From Sporosarcina sp. NCCP-2716 (GTDB lineage: Bacteria; Bacillota; Bacilli; Bacillales_A; Planococcaceae): a DNA stretch of 64,000 nucleotides. The notes beneath the pieces are model-generated. The model saw only the letters and a program-made list of their open reading frames with translations, was not told the origin of the DNA and made no database searches. Of this stretch, positions 6,170-47,930 are shown in pieces. Each line of letters begins with the position of its first letter. Within the stretch, counting starts at the first letter, position 1. Both the position numbers and the translations under genes were made by a program. The stretch lies in the NCBI RefSeq assembly GCF_023707985.1, contig NZ_BRCF01000004.1, positions 124,001 through 188,000 of the forward strand, given 5' to 3'.

Positions 6170-6298
6170 GCTCATAAATCTTGGAAAGCGCTCATAAATC
6201 TCAAAAAACGCTCATAAATCCGCTGAAACGCTCATAAATCGCAAAAAACGCTCATAAACTCGCAAAAACGCTCATAAATCGCAGAAACCGCTCATAAC
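6170..6298 (+). repeat. Tandem array A1: seven GCTCATAAA units, exact 20-bp period
   Basis: CTCATAA begins at 6171, 6191, 6211, 6231, 6251, 6271 and 6291, so each unit is exactly 20 bp. The core CGCTCATAA is constant. The ten bases between cores vary but end in AAA plus C, G or CC. It lies 28 bp after the ybaK stop and points with the gene. The gene-free stretch 6142-6582 holds this array, a C-rich segment (6297-6370) and a hairpin element. Confidence 0.95.
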
Positions 6299-11760: not shown

Positions 11761-11880
11761 GAGCGCTCATAAACTTCGGAAATCGCTCATAAATCTGGAA
11801 AACCGCTCATAAATCGCTGAAACCGCTCATAAATCTCAGAAACCGCTCATAAATCGCTGAAACCGCTCATAAACCCGCCG
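11761..11880 (+). repeat. Tandem array A2: six GCTCATAAA units, exact 20-bp period
   Basis: CTCATAAA starts at 11766, 11786, 11806, 11826, 11846 and 11866. The array lies between the tail-to-tail genes tdh and yjiH. It is followed by about 85 bp (11881-11965) that is strongly C-rich and G-poor on this strand, with no other recognisable feature. Confidence 0.95.
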
Positions 11881-18764: not shown

Positions 18765-19184
18765 TTAGATGGTCGGGCAGTCCTGCTCGGTCGGCGAGAA
18801 GAAACAGTGTGACTTATAGCGCCCGGTATTGTACTGGCCGTACCACTGCGACGGGCAATCCCCGGCCGGCATGAAGAACCAGAGCGACCGCTCCGCCGGA
18901 TGGAACCGCTCGCCATTCACCGCACGTCTCGCAAGCTTCCGGTCCTGCTCACGGGCCCGCTGGTAGAAATAGCCCTTCGTCGTCGCCTCGAACCCTCCCG
19001 GACGCTGGAACACCATATCCTCCAGATTGCGGATATCCGTAAAGTCGAGGCAGCTGGCCCGCACCCGGTTCACGCCGACATTCCCCACCATCAGCATCCC
19101 GAGCTGGCCCTCGCCTTCCGCCTCCGCCCGCATCAGGCGCGCCAGCAGATCCAGCTGCTTGCTGTTCGTCTGAATCACCGCCAC
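18765..19184 (-). CDS. cwlJ: Spore cortex-lytic enzyme CwlJ
   Basis: A 139-residue SleB/CwlJ-type cell wall hydrolase that degrades the spore cortex on germination. It has the family signature LARLMRAEAEGEGQLGMLMVGNVGVNRV (with the catalytic Glu in AEAEGE) and RSLWFFMPAGDCPSQWY. The start GTG (complement of 19182-19184) has GAGGGGGG about 9 bp upstream; an earlier in-frame ATG would add 33 residues unlike CwlJ. It leads the cwlJ-gerQ pair. The upstream region contains repeat units and an insertion sequence. Confidence 0.93.
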   Translation of the reverse strand: MAVIQTNSKQLDLLARLMRAEAEGEGQLGMLMVGNVGVNRVRASCLDFTDIRNLEDMVFQRPGGFEATTKGYFYQRAREQDRKLARRAVNGERFHPAERSLWFFMPAGDCPSQWYGQYNTGRYKSHCFFSPTEQDCPTI

Positions 19185-19269
19185 ACGCTTCACCCCCCTC
19201 AAGCCATTCTTATGATGAACGACCGTCAAACATACCAGGTGGTTGGTGGAGCTCATGAAGTTGTGGAAG

Positions 19270-19314
19270 TGATCATAAATCATGGGAACCGCTCATAAAC
19301 TTGTGAAAGCGCTC
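19270..19314 (+). repeat. Left remnant of tandem array A3
   Basis: GATCATAAAT at 19271 and GCTCATAAAC at 19291 are 20 bp apart, and a third core begins at 19311 as GCTC, where the insertion sequence interrupts it. The continuation is at 21082. Confidence 0.9.
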
Positions 19315-19479
19315 CCTCCCTCTTGAAACATTGATGTATCAAGGGTTCAAGGTATGATTTGGGGAAGAAAAAATTTTTTTCAAGAGTAATACATCCAGTT
19401 CCTTTTATAAAAGTGAAAATATTGAAGAATGGTCGTACGCTGCGCTGTCGGGGATGGAGAGAATTTCCACCTCGGCGGG

Positions 19480-19650
19480 CTTTGTATACGATGCACTCTG
19501 GATCTCCGCTTGCCTTATACTGATGTACCCTCCCATGTCTCTTGGCGTCTAGGCGCTCACATTCCTTCGTCGGATCTAGTATAAGGCGGAGGCTGGCTAT
19601 GCTCATAAGGGGACTCGGTGGTCCTATCGTTTTTTCTTGCCTGCTTCTCC
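19480..19650 (-). ncRNA. Candidate bridge RNA of the IS110-family element
   Basis: The noncoding segment downstream of the transposase contains two guide-hairpin-guide loops. Target loop: GCTCATAA (19601-19608) equals the right half of the repeat target and CGTTTTTTC (19628-19636) is the complement of GAAAAAACG, the left half consensus; between them GGGAC and GTCCT form a hairpin. Donor loop: CCCTCCC (19528-19534) equals the element's end at 19314-19320, and CATTCCT (19560-19566) is the complement of AGGAATG at the other end (21076-21082). The donor loop is closed by GCCTTATAC/GTATAAGGC (19512-19520, 19579-19587). Minus-strand reading gives target loop before donor loop, as in known bridge RNAs. 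Ends are approximate. Confidence 0.75.
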
Positions 19651-19687
19651 GTGTCATCCTGTTGTTGTCTTTCGTCAGAAGAGATGC

Positions 19688-20965
19688 TTAAAGGCCTTCG
19701 GCCAATGCGGGTATATCTTGGATCATCCGTTGCGGGTCAAATGCTGTACGACTCTTACAGATGCCGAATAGGACATGCAGTAGCTTGCGGCAGAGGACAA
19801 CCATCGACTCTTTCTTCTTCAATGGATTCTCTTGACGCGTTGTGTAATACAGATGCAACTGACGGAATGCTGGATTGTGCTTAACCAATGGCAGTGCGAC
19901 GCGGTATAAGATGGCTCGGAGACGCCTTCTGCCACGCTTGGAGAGCCGCTTAACCCCCCTGTGCTGTCCTGATGAGCTTTCCCTAAGCATTAGTCCCGCT
20001 AATTTTTCTAATTGGCGTGGATGCTTATAGTGGGTGAAGCTGCCTACTTCGGACAGTAAGTCGATGATGGTGGGATTCGCGATACCCGGGATGGAGCTCA
20101 GGTACATGTATTCATCAGTTGCCTGAACCATCTCCGTCAGCTCCTTTTCCAACACGGCTAACTCCCGCTCAATCTGTTTGAAACGGGTGGTCAGGGACTG
20201 GATCTCCAAGCGGGCCATGATAGTTCCCTCAGACACGCCGATCGTCGTGCCGAGAAGGGGAATCAGTTTCTTCACTGACGCCATTTGGACAGACCGCAAT
20301 CCATCTGACTGTCTGTAGAGAGCCTTTAAGTCTTCGACAGATTTGCCGTCAAAGTCTACAGGGAGGGGCGTGTATTCCAAAACAGCCAAGGCCATTTTGC
20401 CGAATGAACCAAACACCTGCCGGAATTCCGGAAAGTAGATATCTGTCCAACGGATCAGCTTGTTTTTCAAGGCCGAGCGCTCTTCCACCAGGCGATTGCG
20501 AAGAGTGGATCCTACACGGAGTTCTGCTTCGACGTCCTGGAGGTGGCGAGGATAGTTGTACCGCCCGTCCTTAATGAGCTTTGCGATCACAATGGCGTCT
20601 TTCTTGTCATTCTTGGTCTGGAGATTATCGTCAAGCTCTTTGGACCGCTTGACGTGGATGGTCTGGACAGCCACGAAGGGGATTTTCCGTTCGTGGAGGA
20701 ACTGCCGGAGGTCCAGGCCATAATGGCCTGTCGGCTCCGCTCCTACCAGCACATCCGTCTTACCGAACTCCTTCATCGCCCGTTGAATCTCCTGTCGGAG
20801 AAATTCAAACCCTTGCCTGGATTGGAAGACGGGGAATGGCTTTTTTAATAGAAGGCCCCGTTCATCCACCATACAGGCGTAGTGGGTCTTCTTGGCGATG
20901 TCGATGCCGACCACTAATGTCTTTTCTGTCACTTGCATGATTTTCTGGTTTTGTGTATCATTCAT
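19688..20965 (-). CDS. IS110-family transposase (DEDD recombinase)
   Basis: A 425-residue transposase. The N-terminal RuvC-like DEDD domain shows GIDIAKKTHY (first Asp), VGAEPTGHYG (Glu) and NDKKDAIVIAKLI (two Asp). After a coiled-coil linker (FKQIERELAVLEKELTEMV), the C-terminal Tnp_20 domain has LSSIPGIANPTIIDLLSEVG and ESSSGQHRG, the region of the catalytic serine. The ATG follows GAGGAGG. The gene is full length and apparently intact, so the element may be active. Family enzymes recombine a 2-bp core using an RNA guide, without making terminal inverted repeats. Confidence 0.95.
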   Translation of the reverse strand: MNDTQNQKIMQVTEKTLVVGIDIAKKTHYACMVDERGLLLKKPFPVFQSRQGFEFLRQEIQRAMKEFGKTDVLVGAEPTGHYGLDLRQFLHERKIPFVAVQTIHVKRSKELDDNLQTKNDKKDAIVIAKLIKDGRYNYPRHLQDVEAELRVGSTLRNRLVEERSALKNKLIRWTDIYFPEFRQVFGSFGKMALAVLEYTPLPVDFDGKSVEDLKALYRQSDGLRSVQMASVKKLIPLLGTTIGVSEGTIMARLEIQSLTTRFKQIERELAVLEKELTEMVQATDEYMYLSSIPGIANPTIIDLLSEVGSFTHYKHPRQLEKLAGLMLRESSSGQHRGVKRLSKRGRRRLRAILYRVALPLVKHNPAFRQLHLYYTTRQENPLKKKESMVVLCRKLLHVLFGICKSRTAFDPQRMIQDIPALAEGL

Positions 20966-21081
20966 GTCGAGTCCTCCTCGGTATCCAATTAGGGGTCATT
21001 TCTTCTACGGAACATGACACCCCGCATCATACCAGGAGGGCTCTTTTTTGTGCAACCCCTTCAAAAGTTCAAAACAGGAAT

Positions 21082-21272
21082 GCTCATAAATTATGAAAAA
21101 CGCTCATAAACTCGTGGAAACGCTCATAAATCGCGGAAAACGCTCATAAACTCGTGGAAACGCTCATAAATCGTGAAAAACGCTCATAAACTTGTGAAAT
21201 CGCTCATAAATCCCTGTAAACGCTCATAAACTCGCAGCAACCGCTCATAAATCCTGATAAGCGCTCATAACC
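21082..21272 (+). repeat. Tandem array A3 (right part): ten GCTCATAAA units
   Basis: GCTCAT starts at 21082, 21102, 21122, 21142, 21162, 21182, 21202 and 21222 (exact 20 bp), then 21243 after one 21-bp step and 21263. The first unit is the half interrupted by the insertion sequence. The rest of the gene-free stretch to 21608 holds a C-rich segment, a hairpin element and about 200 bp in which I see nothing. Confidence 0.95.
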
Positions 21273-21365
21273 GTCAGCCAAACTCCCTGTACGCGGTACT
21301 CTCTAGCGCCCACTGGCCACGTCCGCCGCGCAGCATGCCCTTCCACAAGTCAAAACCAAGACTTG

Positions 21366-21402
21366 CTTGTGTGCTTCGCCTTGCGAAGCATTTTCTGTCG
21401 GG
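21366..21402. repeat. Covarying hairpin element, copy 2
   Basis: The stem TGCTTCGC (21372-21379) and GCGAAGCA (21383-21390) has loop CTT and is flanked by CTTGTG and TTTTCTGTCGGG. Compared with copy 1, a T-A pair in the stem is a C-G pair. Confidence 0.75.
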
Positions 21403-21608
21403 TGTATGACACTCCCGGATCGCCCATTGTTTCCAGAACGCACCTTCCGGCGAGCCGAAGCCCCGCTGTGGATTTCATTTTCACCATTTTTTCATCCCAA
21501 ACTTCGAGTTTGGCCCTTGAAAACAGGGCAAATTGCGATCTTTGCGATAGCTATTCCCTTTTGGTTGGAAACCAGATACACTCGATGAAAACAGAGAGGA
21601 TGTCAGCT

Positions 21609-22562
21609 ATGCTCTATAAAAAACGTCAGCCGCCGAAACAATTGAAAGGTCTTCACGCACTGGTCCGGAGGCTTCCGGCGTCCCATGAGAAATACCGATT
21701 CATCCAGGAAGAATTGTACAACCATCGCGCAGGGTACGGCGGGGAGCAGGAGTACGACCGCTGCATGCAGGAAGTGCGGACGGATTTCCCCCATGCGATT
21801 CTGAACGATCTCAGTCTCCTGCATGACAGCGTCCGGTTCCAGATGGACTCCGTTTTCATCGCCCCCGACCGGATCGTCATCAGCGAAGTGAAAAATGTGG
21901 CGGACCGGATCATCGTCAAAGGCAGTCCGCTCCAGTTCCTGAAAGAGACGCCGGCGGGCACGCGGACCGTGTTCCGCAGCCCGGCGGCGGAGCTTGAGAG
22001 GAAGATCCATTTCTTTGAGAGCTGGCTGGCCGCCCGGGGGATTGCGGTGCCGGTGACGGGGCTGATCACATTCGCGCACAATAATGAAATCGTCATCGAA
22101 GAGGCGCCGTCCATGCCGGTTTTATCCAATTACGAAGCGCCGTCGTATTTCCGGGAGCTGCAGATCGGGCAGCCGGTGCTTTCGGCGCCGGAAATCCGGG
22201 CGCTGGCGGATGAATTGCTCGTTTGCCACTTTGAATACAATCCGTTTCCGCTCGCCGCCCGTTACGGCATCGCTGCGGCGGATCTGAAACAGGGGATGCT
22301 TTGCGGCAGCTGCACGGCGGATGCCGTGCTGGCGGCGTCGGGCAGCAAATGGCGGTGCACGCATTGCGGAAAAGAAACGCGCGCGCCGTACACGCAGACG
22401 ATCGAGGAGTATTTCATGCTGGCCGGGGAGACGCTGACCAACCGGGACTTCTGCACATTCACCGGGCTGACGTGCCGCCACGTCGCCAAGCGGGCGCTGC
22501 AGAACCCGATCCTCCGCAAGATGGGGACACGGAAGGCGGCAGCTTATACGCTCGCCGAGTAA
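21609..22562 (+). CDS. NERD-domain protein with C-terminal zinc-ribbon-like region
   Basis: A 317-residue protein with a NERD (nuclease-related) domain at about residues 45-165: EYDRCMQEVRTDFPHAILNDLSL, FQMDSVFIAPDRIVISEVKN, where Asp and Glu-x-Lys resemble the active site of restriction-like nucleases. A later Cys-rich part (CGSC, then CTHCGKET, about 236-262) may bind zinc. The tail (EEYFMLAGETLTNRDFCTFTGL) suits a DNA-binding extension. I chose ATG 21609, 8 bp after AGAGAGGA. It lies alone between two tandem arrays and two hairpin copies. Nuclease activity and target are unproven; it could serve DNA repair or defence. Confidence 0.8.
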   Translation: MLYKKRQPPKQLKGLHALVRRLPASHEKYRFIQEELYNHRAGYGGEQEYDRCMQEVRTDFPHAILNDLSLLHDSVRFQMDSVFIAPDRIVISEVKNVADRIIVKGSPLQFLKETPAGTRTVFRSPAAELERKIHFFESWLAARGIAVPVTGLITFAHNNEIVIEEAPSMPVLSNYEAPSYFRELQIGQPVLSAPEIRALADELLVCHFEYNPFPLAARYGIAAADLKQGMLCGSCTADAVLAASGSKWRCTHCGKETRAPYTQTIEEYFMLAGETLTNRDFCTFTGLTCRHVAKRALQNPILRKMGTRKAAAYTLAE

Positions 22563-22670: not shown

Positions 22671-22901
22671 GTGCTCATAAACCGCGGGAAACGTTCATAA
22701 ACTCGTGGAAACGCTCATAAAATCGAAAAAACGCTCATAAATCTCGAGAATCGCTCATAAAACTGGAAAACCGCTCATAAATCGCGAAAACCGCTCATAA
22801 ATCTCAAAAACCGCTCATAAACCGGCGAAATCGCTCATAAATCCCAAAAAGCGCTCATAAACCGCTGAAACCGCTCATAAATCCTAAAAAACGCTCATAA
22901 A
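22671..22901 (+). repeat. Tandem array A4: twelve GCTCATAAA units, exact 20-bp period
   Basis: Cores begin at 22673, 22693 (GTTCATAAA), 22713, 22733, 22753, 22773, 22793, 22813, 22833, 22853, 22873 and 22893. GAAAAAACGCTCATAA at 22725-22740 matches both halves of the putative bridge-RNA target loop exactly. A C-rich tail follows (22902-22980) with repeated CCGCCCGCGCCG. The array is between NERD and the tail of hemQ. Confidence 0.96.
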
Positions 22902-33294: not shown

Positions 33295-33322
33295 GGCAAT
33301 GGAACACTAATACATACCAAAC

Positions 33323-33495
33323 ACGCAAAAAGGTGCCCCGTGAAGACGGGGTTAAAAGGGAAGCCGGTTCAAGTCCGGCGCGGTCCCGCCACTGTAAGTG
33401 CCAGCTCGTCCACAACTGCCACCGGCCGAAAACCGGGAAGGCGTGGAGCCGGGCGTCCGGAGCACAAGCCAGGAGACCTGCCTTTTTGTCGATCA
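33323..33495 (+). promoter_or_regulatory. Cobalamin (B12) riboswitch
   Basis: The aptamer consensus is clear: AAAAAGGTGCC, GGGTTAAAAGGGAAGCCGGT, AGTCCGGCGCGGTCCCGCCACTGTAA (in pieces), and GCCAGGAGACCTGCC. Helix P1 is CAAAAAGG paired with CCTTTTTG. It precedes the corrinoid uptake and salvage operon. Downstream I see no U-run terminator. TCCTCC at 33561-33566 is perfectly complementary to the btuF ribosome site GGAGGA at 33603-33608, suggesting control of translation. It is the only B12 switch in this window. Confidence 0.95.
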
Positions 33496-33614
33496 CCCGG
33501 TCCCTACGCGGATAGGCACGGTGAAATTCGGCGGATTCCGCCTGATTTCGTCTGCGCTCATCCTCCGTACATTTGAACGGGGGATTTTGTTTGGCAAAAA
33601 CAGGAGGAACCAAC

Positions 33615-43649: not shown

Positions 43650-43920
43650 CGCTCATAAAACCGGGGAAACGCTCATAAATCGCGGAAAACGCTCATAAAT
43701 CCGTGGAAACGCTCATAAATCCGTGGAAACGCTCATAAATCGTGAAAAACGCTCATAAATCCGTGGAAACGCTCATAAATCGCGGAAAACGCTCATAAAT
43801 CCGTGGAAACGCTCATAATTCGCAGGAACCGCTCATAAATCTCGAATAACGCTCATAAATCACAAAAACCGCTCATAAACCCCGCCACTCCGCTCCTAAA
43901 CCGCAGCAACCGCCCATACC
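43650..43920 (+). repeat. Tandem array A6: twelve exact and two decayed GCTCATAAA units
   Basis: GCTCAT begins at 43651 and then every 20 bp to 43871. Two decayed units, GCTCCTAAA (43892) and GCCCATA (43912), follow. Spacers alternate between TCCGTGGAAAC and TCGCGGAAAAC types, giving a 40-bp higher-order repeat in part. A C-rich, G-poor tail runs to about 43975. It fills the gap between the cobalamin operon and fadF. Confidence 0.96.
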
Positions 43921-47653: not shown

Positions 47654-47930
47654 GGAGCGTTTATGAGCGCTTTTTGAGACTTATGAGCGGTTCCGCGAGT
47701 TTATGAGCGTTTTTCAGGATTTATGAGCGCTTTCCGAGATTTATGAGCGTTTCCACGAGTTTATGAGCGTATCCGCGAGTTTATGAGCGTTTTTCAGGAT
47801 TTATGAGCGCTTTCCGAGATTTATGAGCGATTCCGCGAGTTTATGAGCGTTTTCCGAGATTTATGAGCGATTCCGCGAGTTTATGAGCGTTTCCACAAAT
47901 TTATGAGCGTTTCCCATGATTTATCAGCAT
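47654..47930 (-). repeat. Tandem array A7: fourteen units, exact 20-bp period, inverted
   Basis: TTATGAGCG starts at 47661 and then every 20 bp to 47901, with a decayed TTATCAGCAT at 47921. This is the GCTCATAAA class on the minus strand, the only inverted block in the window. It lies between co-directional thiolase and hbd genes. Spacers such as TTTTTCAGGAT, TTCCGAGAT and TTCCGCGAGT recur in blocks of three. Confidence 0.96.

What the first reader, a model, noticed from the sequence alone, without database searches (positions are those of the whole stretch)
19480..19650. Putative IS110 bridge RNA programmed to the host's dispersed repeat
The noncoding end of the IS110-family element contains two loops, each with a guide, a small hairpin and a second guide. 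The target loop carries GCTCATAA (19601-19608) and CGTTTTTTC (19628-19636, complement of GAAAAAACG). Together they spell GAAAAAACGCTCATAA, present verbatim at 22725-22740 and close to consensus for the GCTCATAAA repeat. The donor loop carries CCCTCCC (19528-19534), equal to the element end at 19314-19320, and CATTCCT (19560-19566), complement of the other end at 21076-21082. Both loops fit the published architecture of bridge RNAs, here specialised for a repeat that occurs about 100 times in 64 kb.
Basis: partly seen in the sequence, partly recalled or inferred. Interest (0 to 1): 0.93.

Follow-up and report, generated by a model that had tools for sequence, protein, structure and literature searches.

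The report
Element's guide RNA re-aimed at repeats
A jumping DNA element in a bacterium carries a predicted guide RNA whose two target-reading stretches match a 20-letter repeat scattered through that genome, and the closest relative found carries a guide that differs where the other host's repeat differs, so the element has likely been re-aimed during evolution at abundant and probably harmless landing sites.

Summary
Supported. The strip 19490-19655, read on the minus (transposase) strand, is very likely the bridge/seek RNA of a 1771-bp IS110-family element (19312-21082): a covariance model built without the window or its nearest relative finds it at 151.7 bits, the only window hit. Guides were compared with flanks in 102 of 111 copies from 42 genomes: both target guides fit their own flanks better than shuffled ones (0 of 2000 each), though within target classes only the 3' guide does. 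The nearest relative (82% identical) keeps one guide and differs in the other (CGTTTTTTC v CGGAATTTC); each matches the commoner repeat variant of its own genome (128 v 13 and 6 v 38 sites). Other relatives aim at Shine-Dalgarno/start-codon junctions, a palindromic repeat or a GC-rich site; the window's lineage is nested among Shine-Dalgarno-targeting elements, suggesting natural retargeting. The mechanism is known; the hybrid build (long IS110-type transposase without subterminal repeats, downstream RNA with IS1111 guide order) and these targets look new. Transcription and activity were not testable.

The parts
19312..21082 (-). whole insertion sequence, 1771 bp (ends ambiguous by the AGC/GCT shared at the junctions)
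   Evidence: ends located by comparison with 4 copies of the 82% relative; joined flanks restore the 20-bp repeat period; length
19688..20965 (-). IS110-family DEDD transposase, 425 aa, open frame
   Evidence: PF01548 1-155/155 and PF02371; NF033542 'IS110 family RNA-guided transposase' 204.9 bits, cut-off 140; PDB sequence search finds IS621 and ISCro4 transposases over residues 256-413 and 265-413
19490..19655 (-). predicted bridge/seek RNA, downstream of the transposase
   Evidence: covariance model R1 built from 28 relatives without the window or G226: 151.7 bits, E 4.7e-35, the only window hit at E up to 1; stems with compensatory changes
19628..19636 (-). target loop, 5' guide: GAAAAAACG in the RNA; complement of the right-flank side of the target (CGTTTTTTC)
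   Evidence: overlaps the top complement diagonal of an unbiased scan, RNA 22-28 with R+7..R+1
19601..19608 (-). target loop, 3' guide: TTATGAGC in the RNA; same sequence as the left flank TTATGAG|C
   Evidence: overlaps the top identity diagonal, RNA 47-53 with L-8..L-2
19611..19624 (-). small hairpin between the two target guides (GGAC/GTCC)
   Evidence: helix 2; inner three pairs kept in at least 55 of 56, one of them A-U to G-C in 3 of 56; the outer pair is unpaired in 49 of 56
19560..19566 (-). donor loop, 5' guide AGGAATG, reverse complement of the element's left end CATTCCT
   Evidence: sequence; GAAGGAATG the same in 56 of 56 RNAs; changed together with the end in 7 of 7 readable clostridial relatives
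19528..19534 (-). donor loop, 3' guide GGGAGGG, same sequence as the element's right end
   Evidence: sequence; GGGAGGGT in 56 of 56 RNAs
21076..21082 (-). element left end (transposase orientation) CATTCCT
19312..19322 (-). element right end GAGGGAGGGAG, 4 bp longer than in the 82% relative
21083..21271 (+). flank: tandem 20-bp repeat array (left flank in transposase orientation)
19251..19311 (+). flank: remainder of the same array (right flank in transposase orientation; start approximate)
22725..22740 (+). perfect 16-nt target for both guides, in another array (22673-22901)

Best explanation
The strip 19490-19655 on the minus strand is predicted to be the bridge (seek) RNA of an IS110-family insertion sequence, and its target loop matches the host's dispersed 20-bp tandem repeat, so it would likely steer the element into that repeat. 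Shown here: the two target guides together spell TTATGAG|CGTTTTTTC; relatives in 42 genomes have guides that match their own flanks better than shuffled flanks; the closest relative found differs in one guide and sits in the repeat variant that is commoner in its own genome. Inferred: the RNA is transcribed and bound by the transposase; the donor loop holds the joined ends of the circular element (GAGGGAG|CATTCCT) while the target loop holds the two strands of the repeat; the transposase exchanges strands at the shared AG|C. Also inferred: changes in the target loop re-aimed an ancestor that targeted Shine-Dalgarno sequences to an abundant, intergenic and therefore probably harmless repeat.
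For: Conserved RNA: model R1, built without the window or G226, finds the window RNA at 151.7 bits; 27 stated pairs are 91.2% paired over 56 distinct RNAs with 9 pairs changed on both sides (shuffled mean 5.2), against 22-44% paired and 1-4 such pairs when the partners are slid. Guide-flank covariation, one copy per genome (n = 42): 3' guide 5.24 of 7 matches against 2.96 +- 0.23 shuffled, 5' guide 4.93 of 8 against 4.07 +- 0.15 (best of 6 offsets in both), 0 of 2000 shuffles each. Host tracking: CGTTT v CGGAA repeat variants 128 v 13 in the window's genome and 6 v 38 in G226; sites within 2 mismatches of the window's guide pair: 132 at home, 9 in G226, 4-7 in four others (reversed-pattern control 0 at home, 2-7 elsewhere); of G226's pair: 27 in G226, 19 at home, 2-6 in the others. 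Within one genome (G157) 2 copies with guide CGGAGCAG sit at CGGAGCAG and 4 with CGGGGCAG at CGGGGCAG. Joined flanks restore the 20-bp period.
Against: The repeat-targeting class is small: 5 copies, 2 genomes, one lineage. Shuffling within target classes leaves the 3' guide signal (0 of 2000) but not the 5' guide signal (1054 of 2000), so the 5' guide evidence rests on differences between classes and on the window/G226 pair. The window's own site fits the 5' guide at only 5 of 8, with the register set by hand. In the complement scan the runner-up diagonals (14.0-14.2) are close to the best (16.3). G226's guide pair has 19 near-matches in the window's genome too. The window RNA alone does not fold better than shuffles (z -1.05). 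Several stem pairs are often unpaired (49 of 56 at the outer pair of the target hairpin, 29 and 17 of 56 inside the target-loop stem, 27 of 56 at the outer pair of the donor hairpin) and the number of pair types does not exceed shuffles (430 of 500 as high). Rfam has no matching family. Transcription, binding and activity were not testable.
Confidence: 0.92

Rival explanations
1. The element has a bridge RNA, but its presence in the repeat is passive: the guide resembles the repeat because both are simple and AT-rich, and insertion preference comes from protein-DNA contacts.
For: The 5' guide shows no within-class covariation (1054 of 2000 shuffles as high) and the window's site fits it at only 5 of 8.
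Against: The 3' guide tracks its flank even within classes (0 of 2000); single-base guide variants track flanks inside one genome (G157, 6 of 6); the window's guide pair has 132 near-matches at home against 4-9 in five other genomes.
Confidence: 0.05
2. The strip is only an untranslated region or terminator of the transposase gene, and its matches to ends and flanks are chance or leftovers of past insertions.
For: The fold of the single sequence is not unusual; the terminator scan finds one plus-strand candidate inside the target loop, within the number expected by chance.
Against: Donor guides invariant in 56 of 56 RNAs, compensatory stem changes, a 151.7-bit model hit, guide-flank covariation, and donor guides that change with the element's end in 7 of 7 readable, closely related clostridial elements.
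Confidence: 0.02
3. The functional RNA is transcribed from the plus strand.
For: The plus strand also folds, with lower energy (-55.8 against -47.9 kcal/mol; z -0.54 and -1.05). DNA-level matches of guides to flanks cannot by themselves tell the strands apart.
Against: Stem changes to G-U seen in the minus-strand reading (for example 5 and 4 of 56 in the target-loop stem) would be A-C mismatches on the plus strand; published IS110/IS1111 RNAs are described on the transposase strand, and the minus-strand reading gives the guide order that PMC11187229 reports for IS1111 elements.
Confidence: 0.03

Closest known systems
IS1111-group elements and their seekRNA (ISEc11, ISPa11, ISKpn4, ISPst6; PMC11187229)
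   Same: RNA region downstream of the transposase; top-strand complement (5' guide) precedes the bottom-strand match (3' guide); each element has its own target
   Different: Transposase 425 aa (IS1111 group: 330-350 aa per PMC11187229); no 11-13 bp subterminal inverted repeats found in the window element
IS110-group elements and bridge RNA (IS621; PMC11208160)
   Same: DEDD domain plus PF02371; transposase within the 395-455 aa range that PMC11187229 gives for the subgroup that includes IS110; two-loop RNA with target loop 5' of donor loop; dispersed repeats (REP) as known targets
   Different: RNA is downstream, not upstream; the order of the strand matches is reversed relative to IS621
ISEc21/ISMch6 (PMC11187229)
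   Same: A natural redirection of target by a few changed guide bases between related elements
   Different: There three altered bases and a single ISMch6 copy; here several target classes and a guide difference that goes with the two hosts' repeat variants
IS110 elements that insert in REP sequences, such as IS621 (PMC11208160, as cited there)
   Same: Use of abundant extragenic repeats as landing sites
   Different: Target here is the unit of a 20-bp tandem array, and the element's relatives use other target classes

Membership tests
IS110 family (both groups) | N-terminal DEDD/RuvC domain PF01548 and C-terminal PF02371 | tested here: met
   NF033542 above cut-off
Bridge/seek RNA | structured RNA in a non-coding end with a target loop and a donor loop, two guides each | tested here: met
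   (structure by conservation and covariation; the single fold is not unusual)
Bridge/seek RNA | target guides covary with the insertion site | tested here: met
   within classes only the 3' guide
Bridge/seek RNA | donor guides match the element's own ends | tested here: met
   invariant in 56 of 56 RNAs; compensated change in 7 of 7 readable of 12 clostridial relatives looked at, which are close kin
Bridge/seek RNA | RNA is transcribed, bound by the transposase and needed for transposition | not testable with these tools
   no transcript or activity data
IS110 group (IS621-like) | RNA upstream of the transposase, 5' guide pairs with the bottom strand | tested here: not met
   RNA downstream; order reversed. 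PMC11187229 notes that some IS110-group elements have a downstream region
IS1111 group | RNA downstream of the transposase | tested here: met
IS1111 group | top-strand complement precedes bottom-strand match | tested here: met
   definition from PMC11187229
IS1111 group | subterminal inverted repeats of 11-13 bp | tested here: not met
   window: best ungapped match 7 of 8, score 5, ten shuffles mean 3.5, maximum 5; of 42 elements only those of G230/G231 reach 10 of 11
IS1111 group | transposase of 330-350 aa | tested here: not met
   425 aa
Rfam RNA family | match to a curated family | tested here: not met
   0 matches at E up to 1 in 19250-21150

The most novel reading that the evidence does not exclude
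A hybrid branch of IS110 elements (IS110-length transposase, IS1111-style downstream RNA and guide order) is re-aimed in nature by target-loop changes from the Shine-Dalgarno/start-codon junction, where the element's own GGGAG(G) end takes the place of the ribosome-binding site, to host-specific landing pads; in the window's lineage the loop has followed the host's own 20-bp repeat variant. If so, bridge-RNA guides evolve to pick abundant sites whose use costs the host little, and guide order goes with RNA position rather than with transposase group.
Probability: 0.6. Interest if true: 0.8.

Novelty: new variant of a known kind. Interest (0 to 1): 0.68.

Why it matters
It gives a natural series of bridge-RNA retargeting events, with intact elements and known sites, for asking how these guides change target. 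It offers long-transposase recombinases with short, readable guides as candidates for genome engineering. The Shine-Dalgarno class suggests a way for an insertion sequence to sit between a ribosome-binding site and a start codon, probably without ending translation of the gene.

Tried and rejected
Rfam search of the window at gathering thresholds and of 19250-21150 at E up to 1: no bridge-RNA family. Single-sequence folding as a test: not informative. Promoter/terminator consensus scan: 5 promoter-like sites against 1.7 expected, 1 terminator-like against 1.9, not used as evidence. IS1111 subterminal repeats: not found in the window element. Paper searches for Shine-Dalgarno or ribosome-binding-site targets of IS110/IS1111 elements (5, 0 and 2 papers) and for the 20-bp repeat (1 paper) returned nothing that I judged relevant from titles and abstract starts; the library lacks most subscription journals and all preprints, so this is not proof of novelty. 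A first pattern for parsing the RNAs covered only 49 loci and was replaced by a looser one.

Rows dropped: of 117 relatives listed (the own copy not counted) I fetched 110; left out were 5 copies cut by contig ends and 2 with stops. Of 111 copies (110 plus the window) 102 were parsed; 9 were missed: 7 because my 5' anchor pattern did not fit (L080-L083, L145, L146, L180), one with N in the flank (L162), one cut (L181). L080-L083 carry guides and flanks of the Shine-Dalgarno class. For the window row I set the right-flank register by hand (after GGAG), following the restored 20-bp period. The tree used 51 rows (49 copies, one per guide variant per genome, plus 2 outgroups), and two long branches join doubtfully. 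The target-class labels were assigned by simple rules of mine.

Full report
What is there. The window's genome is placed in the same genus as G178; G178:C10 has the length (30,249 bases) and the same element and flanks as Sporosarcina luteola contig NZ_JAMBOI010000019.1, so the host is taken to be a Sporosarcina. The window holds an IS110-family element at 19312-21082 on the minus strand. Its transposase, 19688-20965(-), has 425 aa with the DEDD and C-terminal IS110 domains; by sequence the solved IS621 and ISCro4 transposases match its C-terminal part. It is the only copy found in its genome. The element splits an array of 20-bp repeats; joined flanks restore an exact 20-20-20-20 spacing if the right end is GAGGGAGGGAG, 4 bp longer than in the nearest relative.

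Observation. The repeat is real: 56 exact GCTCATAAA in the window against 0.27 expected, 62 GCTCATAA, 133 two-unit hits in the genome. None of the seven stretches of array that I checked in the window lies inside a predicted ORF of 90 or more codons; the one next to the element overlaps the start of an ORF (18765-19283) by some 30-50 bases. The number 'about 100' is too high.

The RNA. Of 261 genomes of the family, 48 have a transposase match at E up to 1e-100. I fetched 110 copies with flanks. In 109 of 110 the same RNA layout is seen downstream of the transposase; L181 is cut before it. A covariance model from 28 of these RNAs, without the window or G226, finds 19490-19655(-) at 151.7 bits, its only hit in the window at E up to 1. 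On 56 distinct RNAs a 27-pair structure (target-loop stem, target hairpin, two donor stems, donor hairpin) is paired in 91.2% of cells; 9 pairs show changes on both sides (mean 5.2 in shuffles, 1-4 when slid); the number of pair types does not exceed shuffles (430 of 500 as high). The window RNA alone folds no better than shuffles.

Guides and flanks. Of 111 copies, 102 could be parsed, from 42 genomes. They fall into four target classes: Shine-Dalgarno (49 copies, 22 genomes), a palindromic repeat AACTAACGGGGCAG|TTTAGTTGAA (35, 14), a GC-rich site (13, 4) and the 20-bp repeat (5, 2). With one copy per genome both guides fit their own flanks better than shuffled flanks (0 of 2000). Within classes the 3' guide still does (0 of 2000), the 5' guide does not (1054 of 2000). 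A scan of every RNA position against every flank position, with no guide assumed, put the 3' guide first by a wide margin (39.0; 99th percentile 7.9) and the 5' guide first by a narrow one (16.3; next 14.2; 99th percentile 9.1). Single-base guide variants follow flanks: in G157 two copies with guide CGGAGCAG lie at CGGAGCAG and four with CGGGGCAG at CGGGGCAG; L087, L096, L106 and L142 show further matched variants, L089 and L095 do not.

The host link. The nearest relative found (G226, 82% identity, 4 copies) keeps the 3' guide TTATGAGC and differs in the 5' guide: GAAATTCCG for GAAAAAACG. Its four copies have right flanks that begin CGGAA. The CGTTT variant of the repeat outnumbers CGGAA 128 to 13 in the window's genome and is outnumbered 6 to 38 in G226. 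Near-matches (up to 2 mismatches) to the window's guide pair: 132 at home, 9 in G226, 4-7 in four others, where the reversed control gives 0, 2 and 4-7; to G226's pair: 27 in G226, 19 at home, 2-6 in the others, control 0, 0 and 0-4. The repeat has at least one two-unit hit in 23 of 68 genomes of the genus.

Retargeting. On the transposase tree the two repeat-targeting elements form one clade (100/100) inside a supported set of 8 rows whose other 6 target Shine-Dalgarno sites (98/94). Root placement is for drawing only, so the direction of change is inferred. Not every element in a repeat-bearing host uses the repeat: G199 has 234 two-unit hits, yet its element aims at a Shine-Dalgarno site.

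Shine-Dalgarno class. In 32 of 49 copies an ORF of at least 50 codons (some run off the fetched stretch) starts 3-14 nt right of the element (mostly 7-9), against 111 of 930 random positions in the same flanks and 0 of 35, 0 of 13, 0 of 5 in the other classes. Left flanks mostly end in AAGGAG, and the element's own end brings GAGGGAG next to the start codon. That translation continues is inferred.

Donor loop. GAAGGAATG and GGGAGGGT are the same in all 56 RNAs. In clostridial relatives the left end reads CATCCTG and the guide CGAAGGATGG, in 7 of 7 where both could be read of 12 looked at, close kin of one another.

Strand. Matches of guides to flanks are symmetric between strands. The minus strand is preferred because stem changes to G-U occur in that reading and because published RNAs of this family are described on the transposase strand.

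Known and new. PMC11187229 (seen: abstract, outline, found passages, sections 6, 9, 12, 13) and PMC11208160 (found passages only) establish the mechanism, REP targets, programmability, one natural redirection (ISMch6) and the reversed guide order between the IS110 and IS1111 groups; the former notes some IS110-group elements with a downstream region. Here the transposase is IS110-length and subterminal repeats are lacking, while RNA position and guide order are IS1111-like. I found no print on Shine-Dalgarno targeting (titles and abstract starts only).

Verdict. Known mechanism, new variant: a hybrid lineage with several target classes, one of which follows the host's own tandem repeat.

Noticed in passing
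L076-L079, L084-L086, L090, L097-L099, L121-L126, L128-L131, L134-L141, L143, L144, L147-L161, L163, L178, L179 (junctions): Relatives insert between a Shine-Dalgarno sequence and the start codon; 32 of 49 parsed copies of this class have an ORF of 50 or more codons starting 3-14 nt right of the element, whose GGGAG end sits at the ribosome-binding position.
   Followed up: partly
L087-L089, L091-L096, L100-L120, L127, L132, L133, L142, L177: Relatives insert in a palindromic repeat AACTAACGGG..TTTAGTTGAA, with single-base guide variants that often follow the flank.
   Followed up: partly
L164-L176: A fourth target class, TCC..GGGAG|TCGCCGCC, of unknown nature.
   Followed up: no
6170-6298, 11765-11873, 22673-22901, 43651-43879, 47660-47908: Intergenic tandem arrays of 20-bp units TTTATGA(G/T)C plus 11 variable bases, with hits in 23 of 68 genomes of the genus (1 to 342 two-unit hits); in the listed hits of G166, G170 and G172 GAGC and GATC units often alternate. 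Function unknown.
   Followed up: partly
19312-19322: The right end carries an extra GGGA compared with the nearest relative, possibly a slippage duplication after insertion.
   Followed up: partly
left ends of L018-L024, L026, L031, L032, L036; junctions of L012-L015: Clostridial relatives have a changed donor end (CATCCTG) and, where readable, a matching changed donor guide; L012, L014 and L015 have an ATG shortly after the right end.
   Followed up: partly
33314-33499: Cobalamin riboswitch, 116.1 bits.
   Followed up: no
21363-22562: Gene with a nuclease-related domain (NERD, PF08378) lying between two arrays of the 20-bp repeat.
   Followed up: no
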